This document shows, one piece after another, positions 2,988-52,404 of a stretch of 64,000 nt of DNA. The position numbers were made by a program, and so were the translations under genes. Below the pieces are notes generated by a model that was not told the DNA's origin, ran no database searches, and worked only from the letters and a program-made list of their open reading frames with translations. Source of the DNA: Dysidea avara (taxonomy: Eukaryota; Porifera; Demospongiae; Dictyoceratida; Dysideidae); contig NC_089274.1 of the NCBI RefSeq assembly GCF_963678975.1, forward strand, positions 6,622,001 to 6,686,000, given 5' to 3'. The stretch's first letter is position 1, and each line of letters begins with the position of its first letter.

Positions 2988-5900
2988 ATGATATCGACAA
3001 TCAGCTCACTCCCAACATCAGAGGAGAAATTTCAATGTGCAGTGTGTCACTACCTTCTCGATGGACCCTTGCAGTTTCCCTGCGGCCATAGAATTTGCAC
3101 TCCATGTGTTGGGAGGCTTAAACAACAAGGGTATGTTGACTACAGTGTCTATTATCAATTCACATGCACGCCCGCGTGCCTGACTGTGTGCGGATGTGTG
3201 AGCTAACTACGGTAGGTACTATAGTCAGCTGATTAATTATATCCGTGTATAGGCTGCATACTTCATTGTTGCTTCCGCATTTATATATGTGGCTAGTTCA
3301 ACTCTATAGTTTACTGCTGGCTTTTATAGTACGTATAGCTAGATCAATCTTGTTTAATATGGCTAAAATGTAGTATAGCTATATACACATCCTCTGATAC
3401 AGGAATTTTCATGCAATAATGTTTTCATGCAAGGTATATTGTACACTGCAGCTTTGAATTAGACCACTCCAAATAAATTCTCTGTTTCCCATCCACCCCC
3501 CGCATTTTCAGTTCTCATTATTCCATATTCTTCCATTATTTTCCGATTGTTCTTGCATACTTTACAGGCTCAGTAAAAGCCATCTTGTAACAGTGTCAGC
3601 TCACATGTCAGCATCCAGTGCTATCAAGTCAGCATAAATTCACGTGTGTTATTTTTGCAACTTAAAAGGGAAGGTACAAACTTTATCATGTTTTTATGCA
3701 ACTTTTTATGGTTATGCCAGGCAGATAATGAAATGAACCGCCCACCCACATGCAAATATGCCTGAGTTCAGGATGGGAAACAGAGAATTTATTTGGAGTG
3801 GCCTTAAACTATAGCTTCCTTCAAAACAAATGTAGTTTATTATTATTATTATTATTATTAACACTTTACAGTGACCAGCACTGAAGGTCTACAACAACAT
3901 GTGCTGCAGCCTTAGGATTACCTAACCTAGTTTCAAGGACTTAGACTTAATGACTTATACAGTAGCTGGAAAGGTGTAACAGAAAAGGGGCCAAAGTAAG
4001 GAAAAAAATCCCTCCAACCCCAGGAATCGAACTGCAGGTCACCCAATGTCTAGTCGGGGCCACACTTTTGCATATTAAACAGTGAGCAATTAGTGGCAGT
4101 TTTATATTTTGTTAGTGCATGTTATGTACATCAAGAGGAACCTCCCCAGCTAGGAGTTGTTGTTTTTTTTAGCCAAATGATTAAATTAGTCATGCAGTTT
4201 TTAAAATTAAAGTTCACCATTCTACTGATTTCTACCAATTTCAGAGCATGCTGCACCTTAAGAGAAAGTAATTTATGTAAAGTTTCTCGTCTTCCAGTTG
4301 ATTGTCATGGGTTTGTCGGTTCAGAGTCTGCACCGGTATGAGATGTGTTTCATCAGTGGATCTGTGCTATGACTGAAAACACATGCACTGGCAGTATTTT
4401 GCAAAATGCTTTATGAGTGTTCTTGATACATGTAGATGTACTGTATGACAACTATACATGTAGTTGTTGATATTTAAATTCTTTTTTACAATGTACATTT
4501 GTGCAAACAATTATTATACTATTTCTGTATACACAGTGTTCAGATGTTCTTCTGTGAAATATGCAAGGAAATGATGGCGTTTATAGATGTAAGTCAATTT
4601 TGACTTTTTGTGTTTATTATCATACCAGACTTTGTCTATTTAACACAGTATAAGTGTGTCCGCACCTCTGTTGTTATTTTGTGTGCTTGCAATAGCATAA
4701 TGATATGATTACAAAACATTCATAATGTGATCTATACTCAGTGGCGTAGCCAGGAAAAATTTTTCCCGAGGCAAAGTTTATACGTTGACCAAATTGGGGG
4801 TCTGCTTCTGACTCAACTGATTCACAAATACTTTTCAAGTATGGGTGGTACAGCATTTGCAGGTTGGATGGAGGAAACTGTTTCAGAAGACTCTGAACGT
4901 TTTTCTACATGTCATAAGTAATGCTCCAGCATAGTTAATGCTGCAGTATACCATGCTTCAATTATAAGACTAGTTTAATTACATGCAACACAACTTACTC
5001 CGGAGATATTTTGAGCAGTCAGGCCATCCATGGACTGCAACGAAGGTCATAGTCATGCGTACTACTTTTATTGATCTGATGTGATGTTTAAGTCAGAGAT
5101 AATTATCTCTTTCAAGTGATGTTCAACTGCATGTGCTAAGCATGTCAAGCTAGGGAGTCTGGGGGAATGTTCTCCCTCAAGGAAAATTTTACTTTGAAAT
5201 GGAATGTGGAGCGAGCTATTTTTTTGATTGTAATGGCTAATTCATGATCAATTAGCTCAATGTAATGCCATGTAGTTGACTCATTGGAGCTTTTGAAAAG
5301 TAATGTAAAGACAATTGACATAAATGTGAGAACAGTGGCTATAATCTGTATTGAATGCTCTATTAGAGTATATTACGATGACTGCTCTATTAGAGTATCT
5401 CGATCTTTTACAAATTCAAGCCACACGAAATAGAATCTATGGCTGTAGTACTAAGCAGGGCTGGAGCCTATGGTACCTTGATGGTGCTGGACCACTTTTC
5501 AGCTACTGGGGTACAGCAATGCTGTCTGTAACGTTTGAGTAGAAAATCCGGAGTGCCAAAACTCAGGCCTGCTCAGCCTGCTGTTGAGCATTTTTACCGA
5601 GGCAGTTGCCTTGGTTGCCTCAATGGTAGCTATGCCACTGATACTGATTTATGCTTATCCTTTATAGTGTTTTCATGACAAGGCGATATCTAAAGAAATT
5701 AATTGTCTGATGATTTCTTGTCCTCATTGTAACAACTGGACTGGTGAATATCATCATTATCAGGTTAGTGTATGGTTGGTACTGTCCAATAGACCTCGTA
5801 TGCTGAGTCAAAGCACACTGTGCACATTGTATCAACCAGCTAATAAGCCCACTCATGCATGCACTTAAAATTTTGTTACTATGCCCCTTGAGTAAACTAT

Positions 5901-8516
5901 ATAATTACTTTAACACTAATTTTACCTGTACACATTCTCCTGGCCCCTAGTTTTTTCTTTATAACTCAGGTTGCAGAAGCCTGAAGTATTAATTGTATAT
6001 GCATTGTAATGGAAATAGCATCTCATGTTAAACATGATAATGATCATCATCAATGGGCACTATCCCACAGCAAGGACCCACATGCAAGTACTTGACATCA
6101 AACTATTTGAATGCAAAGCCTCATAATTCTGTCACTGATAGTACTTTCTCATTCAGATATCTTACATGCATGTTATTATAAAAGAAAACAGCACAGAGCT
6201 ACTCATTTTCATTGATTTGCTAGTGCAATGATGTATGTATATAGTTATATAGTTATGGTATACCACACCTCAAAAGCTTATTTACTGTGCTTTACAGAAT
6301 CACATAAAGGAGGAGTGTCAACTAGTCAAGTTTTCATGTCCCAATGAAGGTTGTCATGAGGAGATCACAAGATCACAACTTGATGATCACTTACAACAGT
6401 GTCAGTATAGAAGACAATCATGTTATTGGTGTAAGGAAGAGGTCCGTTATGATCAACAGAAGGTATTTATATTATATTTACCACATTATGATGGATATTA
6501 TGAACTTGTTTGTTACAGGAACATGAAGGGAAATGTACTGGTATTCCAATCAAATGTCCCAGTGGATGCAATGGTTCTATTCCTAGGAGAGAAGTGAGTT
6601 GTATACACAGTAGATAAGCTGTACTGTGTAAAAAGTGAACTAGCTTCTATGCATGCTACAGTTTAAAATGAATGGCTTTTTATTACAATTTGAGTACTAC
6701 ATCTAATCATGTCAGTAAATAGAGCCTGATGAAGCTTAAGGTACAAATTAGAATTTCTGCAAAATTTATTCAGTATTGTGCATGTGAGGTATATAATTAG
6801 CATCAGAGTGTGCCTATTCATTTTTAAAATAATTGTATTGTGTGTAAGCATCATCTATTGTTATAACATATTAGAGGAATTCTGAATTGCTGGGCATAAG
6901 CATGCACTGGAATTGACTACCGAACAAAATTAAACTTTAAAGTTTCAACACTTTATGGTTGAACTTGTTGAGTGTCATTGTAGTCCTCGGGGTATAGACC
7001 TGTTACAAGTATAGTAGTCTCTCCTCCATTATCCAAACTAGGTGTGTTCGGATAATGGAAAAGTTTGAGCCCATACTTATTATACAGAGCTCAGTTAAAA
7101 TACTCTAATAGAACATACACTTTAGGCAAATACTCTAATAGAACAACAGTTTGGATAACAGAATGGATAATGGAGAGACCACTGTATATGTATTGTACAT
7201 ATGTTCCTTACTGTATATTTCAACAATGATCTGTTTACTTCCTAATTACAAGTGGCACTCAGCACATTAAATCATAAAGTGTTAGAATTCAAAATGTCGA
7301 GTTCAGTATACTAGTAGTCGTGTCTATCATTCAACAGTTACAGCAATAGTAAATCTTTGTCCCATTTTCCTAAATAAAGATCAGTCATAAGTATTTAATG
7401 AAGAAGTTCATATACTTCAAGGTATGTACTTGAGATGAATGGCTGGTGTGCATTATAAAAGTTCGATAAAAGGTAATCAAAGTTTAATATACATAGCAGA
7501 AGCTGGGTTGTAGTCAGTGAATATAAGGTGTACTCTATCAGATGTTATTATGGTACATATAGCTATGCTATATTTTAATGTGTTGCTTCTTGTAATTTCA
7601 GATGGATCTCCATTTAGATCCTAACAATGAACGTGGTTGTCCACTGGTCAGCAAACAAAGATGTCTTTTCGCCTTTGTGGGCTGTCAGTTTGAAGCAAGT
7701 GGCATGCAATTGGAAACGCACTTGAAGAAATATGTGAAATATCATCTGTTGATGGTGGGCCAGTATTTGTATGATTTCCATCAAAAGAAACAAACTAGTG
7801 GCAGGATCACTGGCAAAGATTATGAAGAAATGAAGCAACTTTTGTACAATGAGATGGATAAAGCTAATAAGAAGTTAGACACATTTACTGACAATGACAG
7901 AGAATTGGCTTCACAAATCGCCGAATTTCAGGGCAAGCAGAATAACATTGGTTTCCAATTAACTGGAGTGGAGGATCTTTTAACATCACTACAAGCTAGT
8001 ATTATTGAGATCAACCATACTTATGAGGAAGTGTCTCTCACCTTACAAACACTTCAAGCTACTTCATATGATGGTCACTACATATGGAAGATACCAGATA
8101 TCACCAGACGTAGGAGGGATGCTCTACTAGGAAAGACTGTCAGTTTATATTCAGCACCATTTTACACCAGCAGGTTTGGCTACAGACTGTGTCTACGTGT
8201 GTATTTAGATGGTGATGGTAGTGGCAAGGGACGTTACATGTCTTACTTCCTCACCATCATGAAGGGAGAATATGATGCTTTACTAGAATGGCCATTTCAG
8301 CATTTGGTAACAATGACATTAGTGAACCAGAAAGGCAACAACAATATTATACAGTCATTCAGACCCAACCCAACCAGTACTAGTTTTCATCGACCAAAAT
8401 CAGACATGAATGTGGCATCTGGTTGTCCTAAATTTGCTCCAATATCAATACTGGATAATCCTGAATTTGTTGTTGATGATGTGGCATTCTTCAAGTGCGA
8501 CATAAAAATAGAATGA
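2988..8516 (+). CDS. TRAF-like adaptor / RING E3 ligase, six exons (copy 1)
   Basis: Exons 2988-3130, 4537-4588, 5668-5763, 6298-6462, 6519-6593 and 7602-8516 join in frame with GT-AG introns to give 481 residues, the usual TRAF size. Exons 1-2 form a C3HC4 RING: Cys17, Cys20, Cys32, His34, Cys37, Cys40, Cys54, Cys57. Exons 3-6 carry Cys/His pairs of TRAF-type zinc fingers (for example SCPHC at 82-86 and SCPNEGC at 110-116). A coiled coil follows at about 252-327, then a MATH/TRAF-C domain at about 332-478 with YDGHYIWKI, SLYSAPFYTS, YLDGDGSGKGR and FRPNPTSTSFHRP. By family knowledge it would trimerise and bind receptor tails in the cytoplasm, with the RING acting in ubiquitination. The MATH domain resembles the TRAF2/3/5 type more than TRAF6. 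No lesion is visible. Exon limits are inferred from splice sites and from agreement with its paralogues. Confidence 0.9.
3839..4065 (-). mobile_element. tRNA-derived SINE in intron 1, copy 1 only
   Basis: Read on the minus strand, the head starts near 4065 and contains AGTTCGATTCC (4023-4033), a good Pol III B box. The tail is a run of TAA triplets (3839-3860). Duplication copy 2 lacks the whole block (near 47960), where GTAGTTTTGCAT is uninterrupted. The A box is less clear. The target duplication is masked by a T-run at the junction. Confidence 0.7.
4739..5640. mobile_element. Non-autonomous element in intron 2, shared by both copies
   Basis: The ends are CAGTGGCGTAGCCAGG and CTATGCCACTG, with GAGGCAA- and TGCCTC-like subterminal parts. 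The direct repeat next to the ends is only ATACT (5 bp), so a hAT origin is likely from the ends but not proven by the target site. It contains two CTCTATTAGAGTAT motifs at about 5358-5402. The counterpart in copy 2 is at 48630-49541, so it inserted before the duplication. There is no transposase. Confidence 0.7.
7011..7186. mobile_element. Small MITE in intron 5, pogo/Tigger-like ends
   Basis: The right end reads GGATAATGGAGAGACCACTG and the left end is its inverted, slightly diverged version. TA dinucleotides lie at both borders. Inside are two ACTCTAATAGAACA sites. It is also present at 50892-51074. The superfamily is inferred from the end sequence only. Confidence 0.55.
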
Positions 8517-8728: not shown

Positions 8729-8731
8729 TAA

Positions 8732-11858: not shown

Positions 11859-11899
<41 letters not shown>

Positions 11900-19328: not shown

Positions 19329-19833
19329 TCATAGTTTAATGTCACACTTGAAGAATGCCACATCATCAACAACAAATTCAGGATTATCCAGTATTGATAG
19401 TGGAGCAAATTTAGGACAACCAGATGCCACATTCATGTCTGATTTTGGTCGATGAAAACTAGTACTGGTTGGGTTGGGCTGGAATGACTGTACAATATTG
19501 TTGTTGCCTTTCTGGTTCACTAATGTCATTGTCACCATGTGCTTAAAAGGCCATTCTAGTAAAGCATCATATTCTCCCTTCATGATGGTAAGGAAGTAAG
19601 ATATGTAACGTCCCTTGCCACTACCATCACCATCTAAATACACACGTAGACACAGTCTGTACCCAAACCTGCTGGTGTAAAATGGTGCTGAATATAAACT
19701 GACAGTCTTTCCTAGTAGAGCATCCCTCCTACGTCTGGTGATATCTGGTATCTTCCATATGTAGTGACCATCATATGAAGTAGCTTGAAGTGTTTGTAAG
19801 GTGAGAGACACTTCTTCATAAGTATGATTGATG
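19329..19833 (-). pseudogene. TRAF-like fragment, MATH domain only
   Basis: The minus-strand frame encodes a complete MATH/TRAF-C end (YDGHYIWKIPD through FVVDDVAFFKCDIKL and a stop). It begins abruptly at the codons for INHTYEEV, where similarity to the other TRAF exons stops at about 19833. No splice acceptor lies at the break, and no RING, zinc-finger or coiled-coil exon follows upstream. The reading frame itself has no lesion. It is probably a truncated duplicate, possibly maintained by gene conversion. An AATAAA on the minus strand lies near 19266. Confidence 0.8.
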
Positions 19834-21931: not shown

Positions 21932-23098
21932 CTAAAGCAGTGCCAATTTCCTTACATCGATATCACATTTGAAGAACGCCACATCAACAACAACAAATTC
22001 AGGATTATCCAGTATTGATAGTGGGGCAAATTTAGGACATGCAACCAGATGCCACATTCATGTCTGATTTTGGTCGATGAAAACTAGTACTGGTTGGGTT
22101 GGGTCTGAATGACTGTACAATATTGTTGTTGCCTTTCTGGTTCACTAATGTCATTGTCACCATATGCTGAAATGGCCATTCTAGTAAAGCATCATATTCT
22201 CCCTTCATGATGGTAAGGAAGTAAGATATGTAATGCCCCTTGCCACTACCATCACCATCTAAATAAACACGTAGACACAGTCTGTACCCAAACCTGCTGG
22301 TGTAAAATGGTGCTGAATATAAACTGACAGTCTTTCCTAGTAGAGCATCCCTCCTACGTCTGGTGATATCTGGTATCTTCCATATGTAGTGACCATCATA
22401 TGAAGTAGCTTGAAGTGTTTGTAAGGTGAGAGACACTTCCTCATAAGTATGGTTGATCTCATTAATACTAGCTTGCATGCAGGGTGGCTAGAAGGTCCTC
22501 AACTCCCGTCAGTCTGAAAGCAATATCTTTCTGCTTGCTTTGAACTTCACTGATTTGCAAGGCATTTTCTTTGTGCTTAGTACTGTCTATTTTTTCATGT
22601 ATTTTGTCTAATTCAGAATGCATCGATTAATTCTTCTAAAGTATTCAAACTACAAATACTGGTGATGCCATTTGGCCTCTGAGGTGAATGAGAGGATTGA
22701 TACTGTTTGGAGGATAAATATTTACAAATTAGGAGAATATGATCCTTCTGGGATTCGTCCATGTGCTTTGCTAATTCTTTATCATTTCTAGCAGCCTTAA
22801 ATTGACAGCCCAGAAAGTTGAAATTACACTCATCATCAATTTGCGATTTTGGAACCTCCTTATTACATCCTTCATAGGGACTTGATACCTTGACTAGTTG
22901 ACATCCCTCCTTCAAGTGTTTCTGCAAATATAGTCAAACATGTACCCTGTATGCACGATTCAACTTATGATATAATTTACTTGGTAATATCAAGAGTAAA
23001 TACTCTTGGTAATATCGATACTCTCCAGTCCAACTACACTGTGGACAGCTGACTACGCTGAAATCAATTTCCTTGGCTATTGCCTTGCCATGAAAGTA
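21932..23098 (-). pseudogene. TRAF-like pseudogene with three TGCA frameshifts
   Basis: Minus-strand exon 3 is at 23006-23098; the large final exon runs from 22921 down to about 21932. They encode zinc fingers (HLKEGCQLVKV, FNFLGCQFKA), a coiled coil (ENALQISEVQSKQKD, LTGVEDLL) and a MATH domain most like the first half of the chimeric gene at 25090. Three 4-bp TGCA insertions, at 22619-22622, 22474-22477 and 22040-22043, each shift the frame. The donor after exon 3 is also lost: CAG/GTGAGT is replaced by a local repeat of ATATTACCAAG. RING exons are not found upstream, where a retroelement relic lies. One in-frame codon is also missing near the end (VVDVAFF for VVDDVAFF). Confidence 0.85.
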
Positions 23099-25089: not shown

Positions 25090-28000
25090 ATGACCACGGC
25101 TACAAGACATGCGGTAACACAAGCTCCGCTCGTCCAGTTGAATACAGTGGATGAGCGGCTACAATGTGTCCGTTGCGGCTTTTTACTAAATGGACCCCTA
25201 CAACTTCAATGCAGTCATCGAATATGTACTCCCTGTGCTATGAAACTGAAGCAGCAAAGGTATAGTTTATATAGGTAACAAATAGTTAGCCAATTGACAT
25301 GATCCTGTGTATGTCGTTGTAGTTCACCAACTTTCTACTGTGAAAAGTGTCAAGCAAACGTCGAATTTACTGGGGTAAGAGCACTCGTCGACGCTGCCGT
25401 ATATCGCTATGTATCAAAATTTCTTTCGTATACAGTACTTCCATGACAAGGCAATAGCCAAGGAAATTGATTTCTGCGTAGTTAGCTGTCCTCACTGTAG
25501 TTGGACTGGAGAGTATCGATATTACCAGGTGAGTCATCCGGGTGTTTCCATGCCATGGGTACATATTATATGTTTGACTATACTGCATGATATTTTAGAA
25601 ACACTTGAAGGAGGGATGTCAACTAATCAAGGTACAGTCAAGTCCTTATGGCGGAGGATGTAGCAAGGAGATTGCAAAATTGCAGCTTGATGATCAATGT
25701 ACTTTCAACTTTCTGGGCTGTCAGTTTAAGGCCAGAAATGATAAAGAATTAGCAAAGCACATGGACGAATCCCAGAAGGATCATATTCTCCTAATTTGTA
25801 AACATTTATCGTCCCAAAAGTCTCAATCCCCTCATTCACCTCAGAGGCTAAATGGCATCACCAGTATTAGTAGTCTTAATAATTTGAAAACTTTAGAAGA
25901 ATTAATGTATTCTGAATTTGACAAAATAAATGACAAAATGGACGGTACTCAGCACAAAGAAAATGCCTTGCAAATCAATGAAGTTCAAAGCAAGCAAAAA
26001 GATATTGCTTTCAGATTGACAGGAGTTGAGGATCTTCTAGCCACCCTACAAGCAAGCATCAATGAGATCAACCATACATGCGGTCATCGAATATGTACTC
26101 CATGTGCTATGAAACTAAAGCAACAAAGGTAATAACCAGCTTATTGAAACAAGTGATATAGTTGATCTTGTAGTTGTATATATAGCTACTATTTCAATAA
26201 AATTAATACTGAGCTAATTAGCTAACTGCTGCTGATCTTGTTTTACAGCTCTCAAACTCTGTTCTGCGACAAATGTCAGAGAAACATCGAATTCACAGTG
26301 GTGAGGAATTAAGCTAGTTTGATGTATAGTGCAACACATATAGCTCTGCATATACAGTACTTTCCTGACAAAGCAATAGCCAAAGAAATCGAATGCAGCG
26401 TAGTCAATTGTCCTCATTGCTACTGGACTGGAGAATTTCGATGCTATCAGGTAGCTATTTAGCTATAGACTAATAATTATATAGTCTATATGTATCATAA
26501 TAATACTATTATGTCATATCAAAGTGTACGTAGCTACTGAGTCTATGTATATATATGTAGCTACCAAGAGTAAATAATAAAGAAGAAAGTATCTATCCCA
26601 GTAGAAACCATCTTGCAAGATCCTGCAGGATCTGTGCATGTAAGTCTTGCAAGATTCTTGCAAAAGTCTTGCAAGATTTCTGTAAATCCTGCAGGATTCT
26701 GATTCTTGCAATAAAAAAGGACTTTTTCTTGCAAGAATCCTGCATGATCTTGTGAAATTTTCTGGCATAAATTTTCTGGCATACCTTTTCTTGCAAGATT
26801 TTACAAAACTATTCTTGCAAGAAAGTTTAATGCACTTCGGTTTCTTGCATGTCTTGCAAGACCATCATTAGCTTTACACATGCATGCATCGATCCTATAG
26901 CTGGCCACTTATAATTCGATAATCAATGAATATGAAAATATTTATTAGTAGCTGAACATAATCTTGTAAATGGACATGATCGACTCTTGCTCCAAGCTGT
27001 TGTATTTAACTCTTGATTGTTGTACAGAACTTGATTCCCAGCTATCGTAGAAAACAATATATTTAAGGAATGTTCCACCACTATATAGTTTGTTACCTAT
27101 CTTTATCCATTGAAAATATGTCACATACAGTTATCGTCAATGCTATTTCGGTTTTGAATTTCCCACTGCATGCTGTATTAGATAACCTGTAATACGCAGT
27201 TGCAATCATATATAAAACAGTATCAGTCACTACTTGGAGTTCATCATTTCATTGTTGAGGTCAACTGATTGGATGATTGCTTGCATTATCTTGTTTACAA
27301 ACTTATGTACAGTGTTAATGTTCTCAACTTTATGGATATTCTCAGTGACGTTGAGGCATCCATACTAATAAACATTTAAATGCTCACTTATGTCAACTAA
27401 ACATTATCTCCTAACAGGATAAAGCAGAGCAAGAGCCAACTTGGAAGTGGCAAGATGTAACCGCCTACTATGATGTGTATTGTATTGTAGCTATCCTTCT
27501 GTACGAAAAAATATTATTGTTCTATAGTGACTTGGTAACCTACAGTATAATATAGATACTAGTCACACCGGAATATGCCAATGATACAATTAAATTAGCT
27601 TACCAGATAATTTATAGCAAGACATCATTTTACTGCCTAGACGGCTCTGCATAGTGACGGAACTTCGGAGACGCATGTTCTCACACGTCGATAAATTCCC
27701 AGTTTCTTCGCCTTCACGCTAGAAAACTACGGCTGTAGTGTTGTAGGGTACCATCATGTAGCTTGCACCATAGCGGGCTGAAAGCGGACCGGCCACTACT
27801 CGCCGTAGCCGTCACAACTAGCTCGCACTAATACTGCACTTTTCCTCTCAGTCTTTAAACTTCCTTTGCCATGTCAAAATAAGGTGCCATACTACAAGTA
27901 ACGGTGACTTCCGCTAGAGCCGCTTTATGATGTAAGTCACGATGTCACAGTTCGGAAATAACTCCCACCTGAAGAAACCGGCCAGCAATCATTCAAAATA

Positions 28001-31000
28001 CGAGTAAAAACTTAAATGTCACTTTTTAGATCAAGAATTTCATTAATAAAATAATGCTTTCTTCACTACTCCACTCGACACTGTTGCTAAAGAAGCCGTT
28101 TCTATGGTAATATTCTTTACTCTAAATAACGCGCTTATTATAGAATATTGTATTTAATAATTTAAAATGTATTTCGGGATTTTTCTGCGACAGCTTATCC
28201 TTCTGGTGACTCTGTGACTTCTGTCAGGCTCTTAATTGGCATGGTGTTATCAGTCTTGTATAGCTATAAACACTGAAAGAAAGAAAAAAAACATGAATGA
28301 TGACAACTACCTGTACTGAAGCTACCTGTAAAATGTATTGCTGTAACATGCTGTTACTTGGATATCTTTGTACTCTCCATGAACTACTAGTGACTCAGTT
28401 GGCTCCAGGGGTAGCTACTAATCCAGAACTTTCCTCAATGCGGCAGATAGTGATCATACTATAGTACGTAAATCATTTTCCCCAAAGTATATAATTCTTT
28501 CAAGTGTATATAATTACAGTCAAGTAAGAAGTTTTGCAAGAATCTGTATAATCCTTGCAAGATTTTTATGTTCTTGCAAGAATAGAGTGATTCTTGCACT
28601 AGATAGCTATTCCTGCAGTCATATTTTCTTGCAAGATTTTAACTACTCTTGCAAGAATTTGACAAGAAATTCTTGCAATCATAATTTCTTGCAAGAACTT
28701 GCAGGATCTTGCAGGTTCTTGCAACTGAGATGGTTTCTACTGGGTATAGCTAACCTGTATTAGTCCATCAAAATGTAGTCTCGTCCCCAGCCTCCCACCC
28801 GCTTGATCACGCGAAGGGTCATCTGGTGACATTAGTCCAACTTCTTGGCTCAGGAAGTGCGTATTAATTTTTTATTCTTATATTATTGTATACTGTGCAG
28901 GAATCATGTATGATTATAATGCACAGGTGTAATTATAAAAGTGTCATAATCGTTACAAAACTCAGTGTATGTGGGAGCGTTAACAATGTCTGGGGTATCC
29001 TGGATTATTCCATAGTTTAATCACTGAAGGTAGCGATTTCCAACCAACCAATTTTTCACACATATTTTTGCTACTTAAATTACACACCTTCAATAAATGT
29101 TTCACAAGCTGCCATTTCAGTTAACGGTAGTCAGTGCTTCGTACTTCGTAATGCACTTTACTGGATTAAAATCCAAGCGGTATATTTATTGAAATATGTC
29201 AAAAGAAATAAAAATCCCCACATGCATGGGAATCCCATACAAATAATTGTGTACGTAATTCTAATTGGAAGAATACGGCACCAGTGGTTGCCAAAGTTTC
29301 CGAGTGTTTCCGCGTGAATCTGTGGCAGATGAGGACGAAGAAAGTGTTCCTGGGCAAACCGTAGCTATATGCTGATTTCGATTTTTCCGTTTTTTGATTG
29401 GAGGACGATTGACGTTGGATTCTGACGAAAATATGGCCCTTTTAAAGGTAAATCGCCATCTAACACTGTTCAGAATTAGCATTACAATCACCCTGGGCTT
29501 CAAGGCATCCCTCTGCATCGATGCAAGTATAGTTTGAAGGTGAACAGTTTGTTGTCTTGCACGGAATTGCAATATAAGGTTCAAGGTTGAGCATAATCTT
29601 TTCAAAAGTGGAGACTGGCATGTGATACCAACCTTAGATGGCTCCACACTTACCTGATTTTATATTCTGGTGTATTTACTGCTGTTTTGATCCATTTTAT
29701 AGCAGCTTCAGTGATTGTAATTTTGGTCAGAAACTATTTGTAATTTCTCTTTGTAGTATAGTGATATCATTGTGTTATATAATAATTATTATCCTTAGTG
29801 CTTACAATGTGACAAATAAAGCTGAACAGTGTCCAAACAAATCTATTTTAATAATAATATTGGTCTTACATTTTGTTATCTGATTGTCATGTTTTCGAAT
29901 GGTAATTGTGACTTGTGATGCCATTACTTACCATGTTATATAATATTACTGATTTTTCTAGTTAATTATCCCTGAAAATGCATTAGGTACCTGTGTATAC
30001 TTAGTATTACATAGTACACACAGTTTTATTTGTGAATCACTTGCTTTATTCATGTAATAATCTGAGTGGTCTGTCTACAAAGAAGTGGTCACTCTTGAGA
30101 GGTTTTACCTAGCTCATATGCTGTTCTCCATAAAATAGTTATGTGGTGAAAATTTCATGTCATTATTTTCCTATCAAGATTTATGACACTTTGAATATTG
30201 TGTTTTCATGGTGCCATGCGATTATGTAAAAAGCACTGATAATACTGTACACAAAAATCATCACACTGTCAACTTCTTTTGCTTATATCTTTTGATAGGA
30301 ACCACCAATTGGGGTGGGGTTTGCACTAAAATGACCCTGAAAGATAGCACAATATTTGTCATACCAATGAATTCATGGAATGTTAATTATTTAATTTAGT
30401 TGGAAATCTCTACTGAAGGGAAGAAGGAAAATTTAAAACTGTCCACTCTAGTATTTAGTTGATTAAAAATATAATAAAGTATACACCTGAAAAACTAGCT
30501 TAGTAGTGGTCTAAAGGTCTTCTTCACTGTTGATTGTTGTTCTAATGCACCTATCAATGTTATCCCCCACCTACCCCTTCCCAGGCATAGTGGGGGAAAT
30601 GGTGGGGATTTGACTTTTTGAAAAATCAAATTCTCCACCCATGGGGGAATGAAGTGGTCAAATCTCCATGTAGTATGGCTGTTAGGTACTTTAGGAAACA
30701 GGTCAATTCCTTTAGCTTGCAAGTTAAAACAAACGCCTAAAATTTCGAGCGGTCGAGTTTCAGATCAAATCAGGTCAAAATCCCCCACTAATTCCCTAGT
30801 AACCCCGGGAGGGGGGTAGTGGGGCTTAACATTGATAGGTGCATAAGTTGAATGTTAAGAAAATTTTCGTACTTAAAAGTTTTAATCAGCATTCATTAGT
30901 CACTCAAGACTAATCAAAATGAGCCTGTAACATTTTAACAATATTCATTTCAAAGAAGCCGAGTGAGTTTTGATAGAAGCCCTCTTCGCTCTTTTCACCC

Positions 31001-32244
31001 TTTGACACCTGCTTCTTTAAAATGAATATTGTTAAAATGTGGTCGTACAGGATGATTAGCACTGTGGACTTTAATTTACGGGTTCATTTTTGATGGACTA
31101 ATACCGAGTTATAGACACTTTCTTCTCCATTATTTACTCTTATATATACGTATATACAGGAACATTTCAGAGATGGGTGTCAACTAGTTGAGGCGTCATG
31201 TTCCAATGAACGATGTGGTGTAGGTGAGATCACAAGATCAAACCTTGATGATCATGTACCAGAACCAGCATCACTGCAAAATTCAAAATCTAGGATATCA
31301 TTAGTGATACAAGGAACCTGTTGTAACCAGCAAGAGGTATTATGGTACTGTGCAGTGTTCACAATAATCTATATACATTATTATTGTGTATAGGCTTGTG
31401 AATTCAATGTACCAATTACTTGCACTGATCAAACTGAAGAGGTGAACTTAATGAATAAGTTATTATGATTTTATGGGTGACATTATAGGCCATCAGTCCA
31501 CTTGATTGTACAATGAATAATCTGAGATCAACAAAAAAACCATGTCCCTTTAGCTTTTTAGGCTGCCTATACCAGGGATGTAGCAGAGAATTAGAAAAGC
31601 ACAAAGTTGAAAGGATGAACAACCACATGTCACTTGTCTGTACTTACTTTAATAACTTACCTCAAGAGCTTTTGTCTGCAAACTTAAGAAGCTGTGAAGA
31701 GCAATTGCAAAGTGAGGGTGTTGAAGATCCTTTTTCTACACAAGCTAGTATGTTCTGTACTTATGAAGAAGTGCAAACACTTCAAGCTACTTCATATGAT
31801 GGTCACTACATATGGAAGATACCAGATATCACCAGATGTAGGAGGGATGTTCTACCAGGAAAGACTGTCAGTTTATATTCAGCACCATTTTACACCAGCA
31901 GGTTTGGGTACAGACTGTGTCTATGTGTGTATTTAGATGGTGATGGTAGTGGCAAGGGACGTTACATATCTTACTTCCTTACCATCATGAAGGGAGAATA
32001 TGATGCTTTACTGGAATGGCCATTTCAGCATATGGCAACAATGACATTAGTAAACCAGAAAGGCAACAACAATATTGTACAGTCATTCAGACCCAACCCA
32101 ACCAGTACTAGTTTTCATCGACCAAAATCAGACATGAATGTGGCATTTGGTTGTCCTAAATTTGCTCCACTATCAATACTGGATAATCCTGAATTTGTTG
32201 TTGATGATGTGGTGTTCTTTAAATGTGTCATTAAGCAGTCATAA
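25090..32244 (+). CDS. Chimeric TRAF-like gene with one full and one half RING, nine exons
   Basis: Exons 25090-25259, 25323-25374, 25436-25528, 25599-26128, 26249-26300, 26358-26450, 31160-31336, 31394-31441 and 31489-32244 stay in frame and give 656 residues. The first half is RING (CVRCGFLL, CSHRICTPC, FYCEKC), zinc fingers (KHLKEGCQL, FNFLGCQFKA) and coiled coil. At about 26078, just where the MATH part should begin (INHT), the sequence jumps to the second half of another RING exon (CGHRICTPCAMKLKQQ), including its own donor. Then come LFCDKCQRN, zinc-finger exons, a shortened coil and one complete MATH domain (31780-32230). The first Cys-x2-Cys pair of the second RING is missing. This looks like a fusion of two tandem TRAF genes by unequal crossing-over. 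The 4.7 kb intron 6 contains a transposon. It may be a single gene or a dead upstream gene plus a partial downstream one; transcripts would decide. Confidence 0.7.
26597..28744. mobile_element. 2.15 kb DNA element with TTGCAAGA subterminal repeats
   Basis: Inverted ends CCCAGTAGAAACCATCT lie at both borders and TAT flanks each side (26594-26596 and 28745-28747). Within about 200-250 bp of both ends, TTGCAAGA/TCTTGCAA and CCTGCAGG-like blocks repeat many times, inverted between ends. The middle (26870-28520) has no transposase frame; 27640-27960 is less AT-rich and has CpG. It is a non-autonomous element of unknown superfamily lying in intron 6 of the chimeric TRAF gene. Confidence 0.75.
28745..29459. 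other. Intronic sequence, no feature seen
   Basis: AT-rich sequence between the 2.15 kb element and the small minus-strand frame. Nothing recognised. Confidence 0.4.
29460..29621 (-). CDS. Small Cys-rich open frame, unknown
   Basis: A 53-codon ATG frame carries six cysteines at regular spacing in its second half (Cys21, 26, 33, 39, 46, 53), with CKTTNCSPSNYTC followed by GDCNANSEQC and a stop. The spacing looks like an extracellular disulphide-rich end, but no signal peptide precedes it and the frame is closed just upstream by a TAA. It could be the last exon of an antisense gene, a relic, or chance. A longer overlapping frame (29261-29647) lacks an ATG start and shows low-complexity Ser and Lys/Arg runs. 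Confidence 0.2.
   Translation of the reverse strand: MPVSTFEKIMLNLEPYIAIPCKTTNCSPSNYTCIDAEGCLEAQGDCNANSEQC
29622..30545. other. Intronic sequence, no gene seen
   Basis: Short hydrophobic frames here (for example 29638-29883) are AT-rich by-products. Nothing recognised. Confidence 0.4.
30546..30843. mobile_element. MITE with TAA target duplication, PIF/Harbinger-like
   Basis: Inverted ends TGCACCTATCAATGTTA are flanked by TAA on both sides (30543-30545 and 30844-30846). CCCCCAC/GTGGGG blocks lie inside each end. The 3-bp TWA target site suggests PIF/Harbinger. There is no coding capacity. Confidence 0.75.
30931..31039. repeat. Short inverted repeat element
   Basis: CATTTTAACAATATTCATTT and its complement form arms of about 29 bp around a roughly 50-base middle containing GTGAGTTTTGATAGAAGCCC. 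It lies 120 bp before exon 7 of the chimeric TRAF gene. Confidence 0.7.
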
Positions 32245-32879
32245 TTAATATTGAGAATATGCAGCGCTATGACACTTTTATGCATTGCATTACACAAAGT
32301 AGTTATATGCATATATACATGCACATGCAGTACTATAACATTAATTTTAGAGAGTCATTGTGACCAAGATGTATTAATAAATGTGTGTATCTCATAATTA
32401 TTCTCTTTTCCATTTGTGTGTACCTTATTTCCATTTGTAAACTTACATATTTCAAAGCAACTGAATTTTATGTAAATATGGTTTGTCGTTTTGATTATGT
32501 GCATTATGAATACCTTCCATGAATGCATTTTGTTTATACTTTAGCTATACATACAGATTTTTGTGCATTCATGCCTAAATATGCATGCTTTTGATAATTT
32601 TCAGTTGATAGCTACTAGTTATTATATATAAGTATGGCTCATGGCAGTTTTTTGACACTATAATAATTATTAAGATGCATTCTGCATGCAGCTTAGTGTA
32701 TGAAAGAAAAATGAGTCTCAAAGCGGCAATCTTCCCAATGCAAATATTCAAACAGACATCCAAATGACCACATGTCAACTGCAAATGTGTACAGTGTTTC
32801 ATAAGGTCCTGATAGGGTGATGTGCATGGATACCTGTATAGTTAATACGCATATCAACCAACTACAACACTATAAACAC
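32245..32879. other. 3' flank of the chimeric TRAF gene
   Basis: AATAAA at 32376-32381, about 130 bp after the stop codon, is the likely poly(A) signal. Nothing else recognised. Confidence 0.5.
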
Positions 32880-33177
32880 AGGAGCCCGATATCCTTGTGT
32901 TCCTAGTGGCAGGATGGAGGCAAAACTTGATCATCTGGTCAGTATAGGCTCTTTTATACCAAGTCTTGGTACAATACCAGCAGAGTCAAAGTCTCCAAGT
33001 TTGACTTGAAACTTGAACTATAATTGTACTGTAATTGTAGTTCAAAGTTTCAAGTCAAACTTGGAGACTTTGACTCTGCTGGTACTGTACCAGGACTTGG
33101 TATAAAAGAGCCTACTGGCCAGATGATCAAGTTTTACCTCCATCCTGCCACTAGGAATACCAGGATATCGGGCTCCT
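32880..33177. repeat. Long foldback element, about 298 bp
   Basis: Ends AGGAGCCCGATATCC and GGATATCGGGCTCCT begin two arms of about 135-140 bp that mirror each other with few changes, around a short centre near 33030. No clear target duplication. Confidence 0.85.
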
Positions 33178-33772
33178 GAGCACCAGCACTTCATCTTGAC
33201 CATTATGTTGCTGGCTGCAAATTCATAACATATTGCATTGCAGTGGTTAAGTACTTACCTTTAAATTCTCTGTGGACATAACCATTTTCATGAAGATAAA
33301 TTAAAGCTAATAGATGATGATAGTAGATGCTAGATGAAAGGTGTTGAACCAATGCTGATCATGATAATTTATCCAGTTGACTTTATTCAATATCAAGTAG
33401 TTGCGATTATTTTCTAATATTGTTAGCTACCTGGTAGACCCTCAGAATTATTATTCTGTAAAGCATTATTATTATTATTATTATTACCTATGACATGTTT
33501 TGCATTTTAGATTGTTCAGGGGCATAGCCAGCCAATTGATGGTTGGGCATAACATCAACTTAACACACACAAGAAACACGCTCACTTTCATGCGAGACAT
33601 TATCAAAGAAAAATATGAAAAGTGTATGCACACAAGGCTTTCAGCTACCTATGCAATAGTGTAAAGAAACGCTGCTTGCATGCATGCAAACATTTAGCTA
33701 CTATATGCTATTCTATTAAACTTGTAGGGAAGGCATCCACCGACGATCATTATTATTATTATTATTATTATT
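33178..33772. other. No gene seen; ATT microsatellites
   Basis: Contains ATT repeats at about 33464-33486 and 33748-33773. The second abuts repeat unit A. Confidence 0.6.
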
Positions 33773-34921: not shown

Positions 34922-34971
34922 GAACAACCGTACCTTAACAATTACTGATTATTATTATTATTATTATTATT

Positions 34972-36701: not shown

Positions 36702-36738
<37 letters not shown>

Positions 36739-40740: not shown

Positions 40741-40782
40741 TATTAATGGACAAAAATTGCTTGGCAGTACAAGACTGTCAAG

Positions 40783-43894: not shown

Positions 43895-44425
43895 TTAACG
43901 AATGTCACACTTGAAGAATGCCACATCATCAACAACAAATTCAGGATTATCCAGTATTGATATTGGAGCAAATTTAGGACAACCAGTTGCCACATTCATG
44001 TCTGATTTTGGGTGATGAAAACTAGTACTGGTTGGGTTGGGTCTGAATGACTGTACAATATTGTTGTTGCTTTTCTGGTTCATTAATGCCATTGTCACCA
44101 TATGCTGAAATGGCCATTCTAGTAAAGCATCATATTCTCCCTTCATGATGGTAAGGAAGTAAGATATGTAACGTCCCTTGCCACTACCATCACCATCTAA
44201 ATACACATGTAGACACAGTCTGTACCCAAACTTGCTGGTGTAAAATGGTGCTGAATATAAACTGACAGTCTTTCCTAGTAGAGCATCCCTCCTACGTCTG
44301 GTGATATCTGGTATCTTCCATATGTAGTGACCATCATATGAAGTAGCTTGAAGTGTTTGTATACATTTTTGTTTGCTGACCAGTGGACAACCACGTTCAT
44401 TGTTAGGATCCAAATGGAGATCCAT
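43895..44425 (-). pseudogene. Truncated TRAF-like final exon with in-frame coil deletion
   Basis: The minus-strand frame starts like the last exon of the intact genes (MDLHLDPNNERGCPLVSKQ) after a CAG acceptor, then jumps in frame from the first zinc-finger Cys to IQTLQATSYDGHYIWKIPD. About 130 residues covering the last finger and the coiled coil are deleted. The MATH domain is complete to its stop. The intron upstream (44426 to about 44890) matches the intron before exon 6 of the intact gene (about 6930-7600), then homology ends. No upstream exons exist, so it is a partial inverted duplicate; whether it is expressed is open. Confidence 0.85.
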
Positions 44426-44890
44426 CTGAAATTAAAAGCAACGCATTAGAACATAGCTATATACCTTAGTACACCATATTAATACTGACTACAACCCAGC
44501 TTCTATGCAGCTACGTATATTTGATTACCTTTGATAATGCACTCCAGCAATTCATCTCAAGTACCTTGATGTGGATGAACTTCACTATAAGCCTGCATGA
44601 CTGACTTTTATTTTAGGAGAATGGGTCCAGCAGAACAAAGATTTGCTGTAACTGTTCAATGATAGACATGACTACTAGTATACTGAACTTGATATTATGT
44701 AGTCTAACACTTTATGGATTAATGTGCTGAGTGCTACTTGTAGTAGTACATGAGAAAACAAACTTAATATATAGCAAGAAACACTGTGCATAATACTATA
44801 TACAGGCAACAGATCTAGATCCAGGACTACAATGACTTTTAACAAGTTCAACTATAAAGTGTTGAAACTTTAAAATTCAATTACGTATGT

Positions 44891-46718: not shown

Positions 46719-49700
46719 ATGATATCGACAATCAGCTCACTCCCAACATCAGAGGAGAAATTTCAATGTGCAGTGTGTCACTACCTTCTCGATGGACCCT
46801 TGCAGTTTCCCTGCGGCCATAGAATTTGCACTCCATGTGCTGGGAGGCTTAAACAACAAGGGTATGTTGGCTACAGTGTCTATTATCAATTCACATGCAC
46901 GCCCGCGTGCCTGACTGTGTGCGGATGTGTGAGCTAACTACGGTAGGCAGGGCCGCCCAGAGGAATTAAGGGGCCCAGGGCAAAGAGTTAAAGTGGGGCC
47001 CTTGACCCAAGTTGTAAGGTTAAGACCAAAAAAAAAAAAAAAAAGGTCACAACCTGCTGGCAATGACAATAACTACCCATCACCAACCATATCTCCTTAT
47101 CTATAAACTTGCTACACTGCTCCTCTGAAGAATACTGTGACTGCTCTATTAGAGTATTTAGATCTGACTGCTCTATTAGAGTATATCGATCTTTTAAACA
47201 GGTATTCAGGGGGCCCTTCATGGGGCCTCCTGGGGCCCCTTTCAGGCTGGGGCCCGGGGCAAAATGCCCCAGTTGCCCCCCCCTGTGGGCGGCCCTGACG
47301 GTAGGTACTATAGTCAGCTGATTAATTATATCCGTGTACAGGCTGCATACTTCATTGTTGCTTCCGCATTTATATATGTGGCTAGTTCAACTCTATAGTT
47401 TACTGCTGGCTTTTATAGTACGTAGCTAGATCAATCTTGTTTAATATGGCTAAAATGTAGTAGCTATACACATCCTCTGATACAGGAATTTTCATGCAAT
47501 AATGTTTTCATGCAAGGTATATTGTACACTGCAGCTTTGAATTAGACCACTCCAAATAAATTCTCTGTTTCCCATCCATCCCCCGCATTTTCAGTTCTCA
47601 TTATTCCATATTCTTCCAGTATTTTTCCATTATTTTCCGATTGTTCTTGCATACTTTACAGGCTCAGTAAAAGCCATCTTGTAACAGTGTCAGCTCACAT
47701 GTCAGCATCCAGTGCTATCAAGTCAGCATAAATTCACATGTGTTATTTTTGCAACTTAAAAGGGAAGGTACAAGCTTTATCATGTTTTTATGCAACTTTT
47801 TATGGTTATGCCAGGCAGCTAATGGCTTGAAAATCTGCCAATCTTATAATGGAAATGAACCGCCCACCCACATGCAAATATGCCTGAGTTCAGGATGGGA
47901 AACAGAGAATTTATTTGGAGTGGCCTTAAATTATAGCTTCCTTCAAAACAAATGTAGTTTTGCATATTAAACAGTGAGCAATTAGTGGCAGTTTTATATT
48001 TTGTTAGTGCATGTTATGTACATTAAGAGGAACCTCCCCAGCTAGGAGTTGTTGTTGTTTTAGCCAAATGATTAAATTAGTCATGCAGTTTTTAAAATTA
48101 AAGTTCACCATTCTACTGATTTCTACCAATTTCAGAGCATGCTGCACCTTAAGAGAAAGTAATTTATGTAAAGTTTCTCGTCTTCCAGTTGAGTGTCATG
48201 GGTTTGTCGGTTCAGAGTCTGCACCGGTATGAGATGTGTTTCATCAGTGGATCTGTGCTATGACTGAAAACACATGCACTGGCAGTATTTTGCAAAATGC
48301 TTTATGCGTATTCTTGATACATGTAGATGTACTGTATGACAACTATACATGTAGTTGTTGATATTTAAATTCTTTTTTACAATGTACATTTGTGCAAACA
48401 ATTATTATAATATTTCTGTATACACAGTGCTCAGATGTTCTTCTGTGAAATATGCAAGGAAATGATGGCGTTTATAGATGTAAGTCAATTTTGACTTTTT
48501 GTGTTTATTATCATACCAGACTTTGTCTATTTAACACAGTATAAGTGTGTCCGCACCTCTGTTGTTATTTTGTGTGCTTGCAATAGCATAATGATATGAT
48601 TGCAAAACATTCATAATGTGATCTATACTCAGTGGTGTAGCCAGGAAAAAATTTTTCCCGAGGCAAAGTTTATACGTTGACCAAATTGGGGGTCTGCTTC
48701 TGACTCAACTGATTCACAAATACTTTTCAAGTATGGGTGGTACAGCATTTGCAGGTTGGATGGAGGAAACTGTTTCAGAAGACTCTGAACGTTTTTCTAC
48801 ATGTCATAAGTAATGCTCCAGCATAGTTAATGCTGCAGTATACCATGCTTCAATTATAAGACTAGTTTAATTACATGCAACACAACTTACTCCGGAGATA
48901 TTTTGAGCAGTCAGGCCATCCATGGACTGCAACGAAGGTCATAGTCATGCGTACTACTTTTTATTGATCTGATGTGATGTTTAAGTCAGAGATAATTATC
49001 TCTTTCAAGTGATGTTCAACTGCATGTGCTAAGCATGTCAAGCTAGGGAGTCTGGGGGAATGTTCTCCCTCAAGGAAAATTTTACTTTGAAATGGAATGT
49101 GGAGCGAGCTATTTTTTTGATTGTAATGGCTAATTCATGATCAATTAGCTCAATGTAATGCCATGTAGTTGACTCATTGGAGCTTTTGAAAAGTAATGTA
49201 AAGCCAATTGACATAAATGTAAATGATCAAGCAGTGTAATGAGAACAGTGGCTATAATCTGTATTGAATGCTCTATTAGAGTATATTACGATGACTGCTC
49301 TATTAGAGTATCTCGATCTTTTACAAATTCAAGCCACACAAAATAGAATCTATGGCTGTAGTACTAAGCAGGGTTGGAGCCTATGGTACCTTGATGGTGC
49401 TGGACCACTTTTCAGCTACTGGGGTACAGCAATGCTGTCTGTAACGTTTGAGTAGAAAATCCAGAGTGCCAAAACTCAGGCCTACTCAGCCTGCTATTGA
49501 GCATTTTTACCGAGACTGCCTCAATGGTAGCTACACCACTGATACTGATTTATGCTTATCCTTTATAGTGTTTTCATGACAAGGCGATATCTAAAGAAAT
49601 TAATCGTCTGATGATTTCTTGTCCTCATTGTAACAACTGGACTGGTGAATATCATCATTATCAGGTTAGTGTATGGTTGGTACTGTCCAATAGACCTCGT

Positions 49701-52404
49701 ATGCTGAGTCAAAGCACACTGTGCACATTGTATCAACCAGCTACTAAGCCCACTCATGCATGCACTTAAAATTTTGTTACTATGCCCCTTGAGTAAACTA
49801 TATAATTACTTTAACACTAATTTTACCTGTACACATTCTCCTGGCCCCTAGTTTTTTCTTTATAACTCAGGTTGCAGAAGCCTGAAGTATCAATTGTATA
49901 TGCATTGTAATGGAAATAGCATCTCATGTTAAACATGATAATGATCATCATCAATGAGCACTATCCCACAGCAAGGACCCACATGCAAGTACTTGACATC
50001 AAACTATTTGAATGCAAAGCCTCATAATTCTGGCACTGATAGTACTTTCTCATTCAGATATCTTACATGCATGTTATTATAAAAGAAAACAGCACAGAGC
50101 TACTCATTTTCATTGATTTGCTAGTGCAATGATGTATGTATATAATTATGTAGTTATGGTATACCACACCTCAAAAGCTTATTTACTGTGCTTTACAGAA
50201 TCACATAAAGGAGGAGTGTCAACTAGTCAAGTTTTCATGTCCCAATGAAGGTTGTCATGAGGAGATCACAAGATCACAACTTGATGATCACTTACAACAG
50301 TGTCAGTATAGAAGACAATCATGTTATTGGTGTAAGGAAGAGGTCCGTTATGATCAACAGAAGGTATTTATATTATATTTACCACATTATGATGGATATT
50401 ATGAACTTGTTTGTTACAGGAACATGAAGGGAAATGTACTGGTATTCCAATCAAATGTCCCAGTGGATGCAATGGTTCTATTCCTAGGAGAGAAGTGAGC
50501 TGTACTGTGTAAAAAGTGAACTAGCTTCTATGCATGCTACAGTTTAAAATGAATGGCTTTTTATTACAATTTGAGTACTACATCTAATCATGTCAGTAAA
50601 TAGAGCCTGATGAAGCTTAAGGTACAAATTAGAATTTCTGCAAAATTTATTCAGTATTGTGCATGTGAGGTATATAATTAACATCAGAGTGTGCCTATTC
50701 AGTTTAAAAATAATTGTATTGTGTGTAAGCATCGTCTCTTGATATAACATATTAGAGGAATTCTGAATTGCTGGGCATAAGTATGCACTGGAATTGACTA
50801 CCGAACAAAATTAAACTTTAAAGTTTCAACACTTTATGGTTGAACTTGTTAAGTGTCATTGTAGTCCTCGGGGTATAGAGCTGTTGCAAGTATAGTAGTC
50901 CCTCCATTATCCAAACTAGGTGTGTTCGGATAATGGAAAAGTTTGAATAAACAAAGCCCATACATTTATATACAGAGCTCAGTTAAAATACTCTAATAGA
51001 ACATACACTTTAGGCAAATACTCTAATAGAACAACAGTTTGGATAACAGAATGGATAATGGAGAGACCACTGTATATGTATTGTACATATGTTCCTTACT
51101 GTATATTTCAACAATGATCTGTTTACTTCCTAATTACAAATAGCACTCAGCACATTAAGTCATAAAGTGTTAGAATTCAAAATGTCGAGTTCAGTATACT
51201 AGTAGTCGTGTCTATCATTCAACAGTTACAGCAATAGTAAATCTTTGTCCCATTTTCCTAAATAAAGATCAGTCATAAGTATTTAATGAAGAAGTTCATA
51301 TACTTCAAGGTATGTACTTGAGATGAATGGCTGGTGTGCATTATAAAAGTTCGATAAAAGGTAATCAAAGTTTAATATACATAGCAGAAGCTGGGTTGTA
51401 GTCAGTGAATATAAGGTGTACTCTATCAGATGTTATTATGATACATATAGCTATGCTATATTTTAATGTGTTGCTTCTTGTAATTTCAGATGGATCTCCA
51501 TTTAGATCCTAACAATGAACGTGGTTGTCCACTGGTCAGCAAACAAAGATGTCTTTTCGCCTTTGTGGGCTGTCAGTTTGAAGCAAGTGGCATGCAATTA
51601 GAAATGCACTTGAAGAAATATGTGAAACATCATCTGTTGATGGTGGGCCAGTATTTGTATGATTTCCATCAAAAGAAACAAACTAGTGGCAGGATCACTG
51701 GCAAAGATTATGAAGAAATGAAGCAACTTTTGTACAATGAGATGGATAAAGCTAATAAAAAGTTAGACACATTTACTGACAATGACAGAGAATTGGCTTC
51801 ACAAATCACCGAATTTCAGGGCAAGCAGAATAACATTGGTTTCCAATTAACTGGAGTTGAGGATCTTTTAACATCACTACAAGCTAGTATTATTGAGATC
51901 AACCATACTTATGAGGAAGTGTCTCTCACCTTACAAACACTTCAAGCTACTTCATATGATGGTCACTACATATGGAAGATACCAGATATCACCAGACGTA
52001 GGAGGGATGCTCTACTAGGAAAGACTGTCAGTTTATATTCAGCACCATTTTACACTAGCAGGTTTGGGTACAGACTGTGTCTACGTGTGTATTTAGATGG
52101 TGATGGTAGTGGCAAGGGACGTTACATGTCTTACTTCCTCACCATCATGAAGGGAGAATATGATGCTTTACTGGAATGGCCATTTCAGCATATGGTGACA
52201 ATGACATTAGTGAACCAGAAAGGCAACAACAATATTATACAGTCATTCAGACCCAACCCAACCAGTACTAGTTTTCATCGACCAAAATCAGACATGAATG
52301 TGGCATCTGGTTGTCCTAAATTTGCTCCAATATCAATACTGGATAATCCTGAATTTGTTGTTGATGATGTGGCATTCTTCAAGTGTGACATAAAAATAGA
52401 ATGA
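46719..52404 (+). CDS. TRAF-like adaptor / RING E3 ligase, six exons (copy 2)
   Basis: Exons 46719-46861, 48428-48479, 49569-49664, 50199-50363, 50420-50494 and 51490-52404 join in frame to 481 residues, with the same splice phases as copy 1. The RING ligands (Cys17/20/32/37/40/54/57, His34), zinc-finger Cys/His residues, coiled coil and MATH domain are all kept. A handful of residue changes separate it from copy 1, for example Val41Ala next to the RING, Cys78Arg in the linker finger (a non-ligand position by my reading) and Thr/Met in the last finger region. Frame and splice sites are intact in both copies although the introns have gained or lost several elements, which suggests both remain under selection or the duplication is young. 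Confidence 0.9.
46948..47297. mobile_element. Non-autonomous hAT-like element in intron 1, copy 2 only
   Basis: The ends CAGGGCCGCCCA and TGGGCGGCCCTG are perfect inverts, flanked by an 8-bp duplication ACGGTAGG (46940-46947 and 47298-47305). Copy 1 shows the empty site at about 3210. The inside has an A-tract between AAGACC and GGTCAC and two CTCTATTAGAGTAT motifs (47140-47190). Confidence 0.95.
48630..49541. mobile_element. Non-autonomous element in intron 2, counterpart of 4739-5640
   Basis: Same ends and motifs as in copy 1, with small differences (CAGTGGTGTAG left end, CTACACCACTG right end, a 22-bp gain near 49222). Inherited with the duplication. Confidence 0.7.
50892..51074. mobile_element. 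Small MITE, counterpart of 7011-7186
   Basis: Same inverted ends and two ACTCTAATAGAACA sites. Inherited with the duplication. Confidence 0.55.

What the first reader, a model, noticed from the sequence alone, without database searches (positions are those of the whole stretch)
25090..32244. Nine-exon chimeric TRAF gene that stays in frame through a recombination junction
At about 26078 the coiled coil of one TRAF gene runs straight into the second half of a RING exon of another, with loss of the first MATH domain and of the first Cys pair of the second RING. All nine predicted exons keep matching splice phases and give one 656-residue frame ending in a single MATH domain. A fusion by unequal crossing-over between tandem TRAF genes would normally break the frame. 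If expressed, it is a TRAF with two RING/zinc-finger modules, the second incomplete, which is an unusual architecture.
Basis: partly seen in the sequence, partly recalled or inferred. Interest (0 to 1): 0.8.

Follow-up and report, generated by a model that had tools for sequence, protein, structure and literature searches.

The report
In-frame fusion of two TRAF genes
Two neighbouring TRAF immune-adaptor genes in an animal genome, probably a sponge, have been joined by a deletion into one long reading frame, most likely a by-product of a recombination-prone gene cluster that is already losing its function rather than a new kind of adaptor.

Summary
Nine GT-AG exons (25090-32244) join in phase into 656 codons, and at 26077/26078 a TRAF coiled coil runs into the latter part of a RING (6 of 8 zinc ligands). 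In the neighbouring copy P4 the same coiled coil runs on into MATH, which shows what was lost.

The inference is overstated. Exon phases are shared with the parent genes, so only one junction had to stay in frame (chance 1 in 3), and it shows no homology beyond about 3 bp.

Seven MATH copies lie in the window. Their MATH blocks are nearly alike (Ks 0.04-0.16, 21 pairs), while coiled coils of separate genes differ strongly (Ks 0.98-1.82, 5 pairs). The seam lies at the 5' edge of that block.

The fusion's MATH has 6 nonsynonymous and 1 synonymous private changes, against 1 and 9 in copies P1-P3 (p = 0.004). One removes the arginine matching TRAF2 Arg393, a receptor-peptide contact. Yet nothing breaks the frame, so if the gene is dead, it died recently.

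Most likely: an end-joining fusion under relaxed constraint. Not excluded: a live two-module TRAF, exon choice giving single-RING TRAFs, or an assembly error. No reads, transcripts or second genome were available.

The parts
25090..25259 (+). E1: start codon and complete first part of RING1 (gene A), donor phase 2
25323..25374 (+). E2: last Cys pair of RING1 (52 nt)
25436..25528 (+). E3: Cys-rich exon (93 nt), homologous in P1-P4 and to E6
25599..26077 (+). E4, gene A part: degenerate TRAF zinc finger and coiled coil; closest copy P4
26077..26078 (+). Seam: gene A coiled coil (ATCAACCATAC) to gene B RING (ATGCGGTCATCG)
26078..26128 (+). E4, gene B part: RING2 without its first Cys pair, donor phase 2
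26249..26300 (+). E5: last Cys pair of RING2 (52 nt)
26358..26450 (+). E6: Cys-rich exon (93 nt)
31160..31336 (+). E7: TRAF zinc-finger exon; about the first 35 codons have homologues, the rest none
31394..31441 (+). E8: 48-nt exon, no homologue found in the window
31489..32244 (+). E9: last zinc finger, shortened pre-MATH region, MATH domain, stop
31774..32234 (+). Homogenised MATH block of the fusion gene
21959..23098 (-). P4: broken copy (frameshifts) closest to the gene A half; keeps coiled coil joined to MATH
3009..8516 (+). P1: TRAF copy (RING 3009-3128, 52-nt exon 4537-4588, 5671-5763, zinc finger from 6301, last exon to 8516)
46740..52404 (+). P2: near-identical copy of P1 in a direct segmental duplication (1168-13014 against 45199-57351)
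60803..63223 (-). P3: TRAF copy, reverse strand
19332..19832 (-). P5: MATH-only, 5'-truncated copy; similarity starts at the same coiled coil/MATH border as the seam
43895..44431 (-). P6: copy with the coiled coil deleted in frame

Best explanation
Two TRAF genes of one subfamily, A and B, stood head to tail. A double-strand break was mended by end joining: it removed A's MATH domain, the space between the genes and B's start codon and first RING Cys pair, and set A's coiled coil in frame with the rest of B's RING exon. The splice phases were inherited. The result is one of several recombination scars in a cluster whose MATH blocks are homogenised, presumably by gene conversion between copies. 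The fused gene has since been under relaxed constraint: its MATH has lost the arginine that meets receptor peptides in TRAF2, and its zinc fingers lack ligands. It is most likely a recently dying gene, or one whose full-length product no longer works as a normal TRAF adaptor. Shown: the open frame, the seam, the parentage, the homogenised block, the substitution counts. Inferred: end joining, gene conversion as the cause, relaxed constraint after the fusion, loss of receptor binding.
For: Seam and parentage. No homology beyond about 3 bp at the seam, and the nearest similarity would give a frameshift. P1/P3 identity 57-85% over the coiled-coil windows 7716-8015, 85-100% over the MATH windows, 38-53% after the stop; Ks coiled coil 1.24 against MATH 0.149 for P1/P3, and MATH Ks 0.044-0.161 over all 21 pairs of 7 copies. 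Seam at P1-equivalent about 8020, P5 truncation at about 8010, P6 deletion edge at about 8043. Fusion MATH private changes 6 nonsynonymous to 1 synonymous, all 7 transitions, 2 at CpG; P1+P2+P3 1 to 9, Fisher p = 0.0037; P1-P5 5 to 16, p = 0.0069. Query residue 56 (Cys) aligns to chain position 60 of TRAF2 1ca4 (Arg); passages of PMC12457700 name Arg393 and Tyr395 as contacts of the peptide's Glu; that position 60 is residue 393 rests on recalled numbering.
Against: No frame-breaking lesion in 1971 nt. With private divergence 1.5% (7 of 458 nt) taken as neutral, a simple model gives P(no lesion) 0.002-0.02 (0.13-0.27 at 0.5%, 0.017-0.07 at 1%), and its indel rates (0.1-0.2 per substitution) are at or below most of those measured in the P1/P2 duplication (0.17-0.41). 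Indels between A's E4 and P4 include three of 3 nt, which speaks for frame constraint on A at least before the fusion. Across the older divergence A and B shared strong constraint (Ka/Ks 0.10). The private-change test rests on 7 changes; private variants may have come by conversion from a copy outside the window; P4, a frameshifted copy, shows only 2 to 3, so the test is weak; it does not separate relaxed from positive selection. The P1/P3 zinc-finger exon also has low Ks (0.194), so homogenisation may reach beyond MATH or rates may differ between regions.
Confidence: 0.5

Rival explanations
1. A live new gene: a two-module TRAF with RING-ZF-coiled coil-halfRING-ZF-MATH, kept by selection, perhaps as a decoy adaptor that no longer binds the usual receptor motif.
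For: Open frame and eight usable introns; chance of no lesion under neutrality low if the fusion is older than about 1% divergence; three 3-nt indels between A and P4.
Against: 6 to 1 private changes in its MATH, half RING below Pfam's cut-off, missing zinc ligands, coiled coil no longer next to MATH, no expression evidence.
Confidence: 0.15
2. A gene saved by exon choice: because the fused exon E4 ends with the same donor phase (2) as E1, and E3 and E6 both end in phase 0, splicing E1 to E5 or E3 to E7 drops the fused exon and yields a single complete RING with zinc fingers and MATH; the duplicated exons would act as alternative cassettes.
For: Both joins give 431 codons in frame with a complete C3HC4 RING at residue 26.
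Against: Follows automatically from the shared exon layout, so it is not independent evidence; the products would have only the short pre-MATH region of E9; no transcripts seen.
Confidence: 0.1
3. Two transcripts: the A half ends in intron 4 and makes a RING-ZF-coiled-coil protein without MATH; the B half is silent or starts internally.
For: Reading past E4 meets two stops at once (KQQR**), and an AATAAA lies at 26196.
Against: AATAAA/ATTAAA motifs are common here (14 in 25600-32700); the E4 donor is a usable GTAATA.
Confidence: 0.15
4. Assembly error: two distinct loci or haplotypes wrongly joined at 26077/26078.
For: The window is rich in near-identical copies (P1/P2 duplication with 1.3-2.4% mismatches over its two long stretches), which favours misassembly in general.
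Against: The seam itself lies in no long exact repeat and at no N; an overlap-based join would need more shared sequence. That is inference: no reads were available.
Confidence: 0.1

Closest known systems
TRAF family adaptors (TRAF1/2/3/5 type)
   Same: MATH domain matches TRAF1, TRAF2, TRAF3 and TRAF5 structures best; RING1 matches the TRAF3 RING (2ecy) and the stretch 20-116 matches TRAF2 3knv.
   Different: Second, incomplete RING/zinc-finger module between coiled coil and MATH; coiled coil not next to MATH; arginine matching TRAF2 Arg393 changed to Cys.
Copy P4 in the same window (21959-23098, reverse)
   Same: 84% identical over E3-E4; same exon layout.
   Different: Keeps coiled coil joined to MATH but is broken by frameshifts.
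Gene families under interlocus gene conversion with chimeric members (general knowledge; search listings only)
   Same: Block of high identity with sharp edges inside otherwise diverged tandem copies; fusion and truncated copies in the same cluster.
   Different: I saw no paper describing this for TRAF genes; searches were few and the listings capped.

Membership tests
TRAF adaptor family | C-terminal MATH (TRAF-C) domain | tested here: met
   Pfam MATH_2 E 6.4e-36, TRAF-mep_MATH E 2.4e-42; TRAF structures
TRAF adaptor family | N-terminal RING (absent in TRAF1, recalled) | tested here: met
   C3HC4 spacing complete in RING1; 2ecy E 1.2e-5; below Pfam's cut-off
TRAF adaptor family | TRAF-type zinc fingers | tested here: inconclusive
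   No zf-TRAF model among the hits at E up to 0.1; homology to the Cys-rich exons of P1-P4; ligands missing
TRAF adaptor family | Coiled coil directly before MATH | tested here: not met
   In the full-length model the long coiled coil of E4 is followed by the second RING; E9 keeps only a shortened region. Helices predicted in E4 at low confidence (mean pLDDT 50.5)
TRAF adaptor family | Receptor-peptide contact arginine (TRAF2 Arg393) | tested here: not met
   Cys at that position; role of Arg393 from passages of PMC12457700; numbering recalled
Pseudogene | Disabled frame or splice sites | tested here: not met
   656 codons open, all introns GT-AG
Pseudogene | Loss of protein-level constraint | tested here: inconclusive
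   MATH private changes 6 to 1, not distinguishable from neutral (one-sided p 0.87), but few changes
Expressed fusion gene | Transcript joining both halves | not testable with these tools
   No RNA data

The most novel reading that the evidence does not exclude
A living TRAF gene built from two parents whose doubled RING/zinc-finger exons, all in compatible phases, let one locus make both a two-module TRAF and, by skipping the fused exon, single-RING TRAFs, with a MATH domain freed from the usual receptor motif.
Probability: 0.13. Interest if true: 0.65.

Novelty: new variant of a known kind. Interest (0 to 1): 0.36.

Why it matters
If expressed, it would be a TRAF with an architecture for which I found no record (few, capped searches), and a natural test of whether an adaptor tolerates a second, incomplete RING module. 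Even if dying, the cluster shows in one window how a signalling-adaptor family is kept alike in its receptor-binding domain while the rest diverges, and how breaks gather at the border of the homogenised block. The number of breaks is small, so that border effect is a lead, not a result.

Tried and rejected
Rejected: chance alignment of unrelated exons (exons except E8 and the end of E7 have homologues in the window). Rejected: a classical homologous crossover at the seam (no shared stretch beyond about 3 bp). Considered and dropped: that P5 is the MATH piece cut out of gene A. Its downstream flank resembles that of P1 (18525-18759 against 8733-8968), and P4, the copy nearest to A, showed no such match.

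AlphaFold models were too poor to use (E9 mean pLDDT 36.0; E4 50.5), so no fold search was made. Paper searches gave listings with the starts of abstracts; one paper was read in passages only (PMC12457700). The search for TRAF2 with R393 and S467 gave 0 papers.

Mistakes on the way: exon ends were off by one or two and for E8; corrected. The script output that should have shown the two arms of the intron element joined was cut by my own print, so that claim rests.

Full report
What is there. The finding's exon model was rebuilt from the sequence: nine exons, eight GT-AG introns, matching phases, 656 codons, no internal stop, no N in the window. The seam is at 26077/26078. To its left, 25431-26077 is 83.8% identical to the reverse-strand copy 23103-22447; to its right, 26078-26131 is 92.6% identical to gene A's own RING exon 25209-25262. 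E5 and E6 repeat E2 and E3 with the same lengths, 52 and 93 nt, and P1 has a 52-nt candidate exon at the same place (4537-4588). So B was a TRAF of the same layout as A. In P4, the copy nearest to A, the coiled coil runs on into MATH: that is what A lost. B lost its start and the first Cys pair of its RING; 6 of 8 ligands remain.

Is it more than chance? Yes as a gene fusion: exons other than E8 and about the last 24 codons of E7 have homologues in the window, and the MATH matches TRAF structures at about 1e-48. Both parents were spliced genes with the same phases, so only the seam could break the frame, with 1 chance in 3 to keep it. At the seam the parents' sequences (P4 for A: ATCAACCATACTTATGAGG; A's RING exon standing in for B: CTTCAATGCAGTCATCG) share no more than about 3 bp, and crossing over at the nearest similarity would have shifted the frame. 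End joining is the simplest cause (inference; B's true parent sequence is not known).

The cluster. Seven MATH copies lie in the window, three on the + strand and four on the - strand. Their MATH blocks are nearly alike (Ks 0.044-0.161 over 21 pairs), while coiled coils of separate genes are far apart (Ks 0.98-1.82 over 5 pairs; P1/P2, a recent duplicate, 0.061; A/P4 0.192). In windows of 60 nt P1/P3 identity is 57-74% up to position 7955, 85% in the next window, 85-100% through MATH and 38-53% in the four full windows from the stop codon on. Gene conversion is the natural reading. Against a simple version of it, the P1/P3 zinc-finger exon also has a low Ks (0.194). The 5' edge of the block is where copies tend to be broken: the fusion's seam (P1-equivalent about 8020), the truncation of P5 (about 8010), the deletion in P6 (about 8043), and a 4-nt frameshifting difference in P4 a few codons upstream. 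This was noticed afterwards and the numbers are small.

Is the fusion alive? For: no lesion in 1971 nt. A simple neutral model gives 0.13-0.27 for an unbroken frame at 0.5% divergence, 0.017-0.07 at 1% and 0.002-0.02 at 1.5%. Three indels of 3 nt separate A's E4 from P4. A against B shows Ka/Ks 0.10 over half RING, E2/E5 and E3/E6, but most of that divergence must predate the fusion. Against: among the 7 MATH copies the fusion has 6 nonsynonymous and 1 synonymous private changes; P1 1/1, P2 0/1, P3 0/7, P4 2/3, P5 2/4 (three of its six in one codon), P6 7/1. The fusion differs from P1-P3 together (p = 0.0037) and from P1-P5 (p = 0.0069) and is not distinguishable from neutral (one-sided p 0.87). 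All seven changes are transitions and two are CpG losses; the window's CpG observed/expected ratio is 0.38, and the fusion and P6 have 2 CpG in the block against 4-5 in the others. One change turns the arginine aligned to position 60 of TRAF2 chain 1ca4 into Cys. By recalled numbering this is Arg393, which passages of PMC12457700 name with Tyr395 as contact of the peptide's Glu. P6 has lost the same arginine (to His). Another, Ser to Phe, falls at the position I recall as TRAF2 Ser467; I found no paper for it. Gene A's first zinc finger had already lost ligands before P4 and A parted (alignment), and B's E7/E8 lack some too.

Verdict. The best-supported account is an end-joining fusion of two neighbouring TRAF copies in a recombining cluster, recent or constrained long enough to keep its frame, and now relaxed at least in its MATH. 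A live two-module TRAF cannot be excluded. An attractive variant is that the inherited phases let E1 splice to E5, or E3 to E7, giving 431-codon single-RING TRAFs; this follows from the layout and is not evidence by itself. Assembly error is unlikely from the sequence alone but untested. Nothing in other collections helped, and no transcript or second genome was available.

Noticed in passing
26550-31156: The 4.7-kb intron 6 seems to be made of nested mobile elements: inverted arms 26550-26596/31111-31156 (83%, 47 nt) and 28751-28773/31088-31111 (92%, 24 nt), with an element 26593-28749 (inverted ends, 81%) inside the left arm. This explains the intron's length without missing exons.
   Followed up: partly
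30545-30844 and 30930-31040: Two short elements with inverted ends (79% over 73 nt, and 97% over 30 nt), without further copies in the window at E 1e-5.
   Followed up: partly
1168-13014 and 45199-57351: Direct segmental duplication in several pieces (blastn identity 91-98%; 1.3% and 2.4% mismatches over the two longest), 44 kb apart; could also be two haplotypes joined by the assembler.
   Followed up: partly
15216-18505: 3.3-kb minisatellite, 31-bp unit, about 107 copies.
   Followed up: no
33749-36792 and 39620-40742: Group of repeats up to 99.6% identical.
   Followed up: no
32879-33178 and 18910-19232: Near-perfect self-inverted repeats of about 300 bp (92% and 97%).
   Followed up: no
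43895-44431: P6: another in-frame deletion fusion (zinc finger straight into MATH), with 7 nonsynonymous to 1 synonymous private changes.
   Followed up: partly
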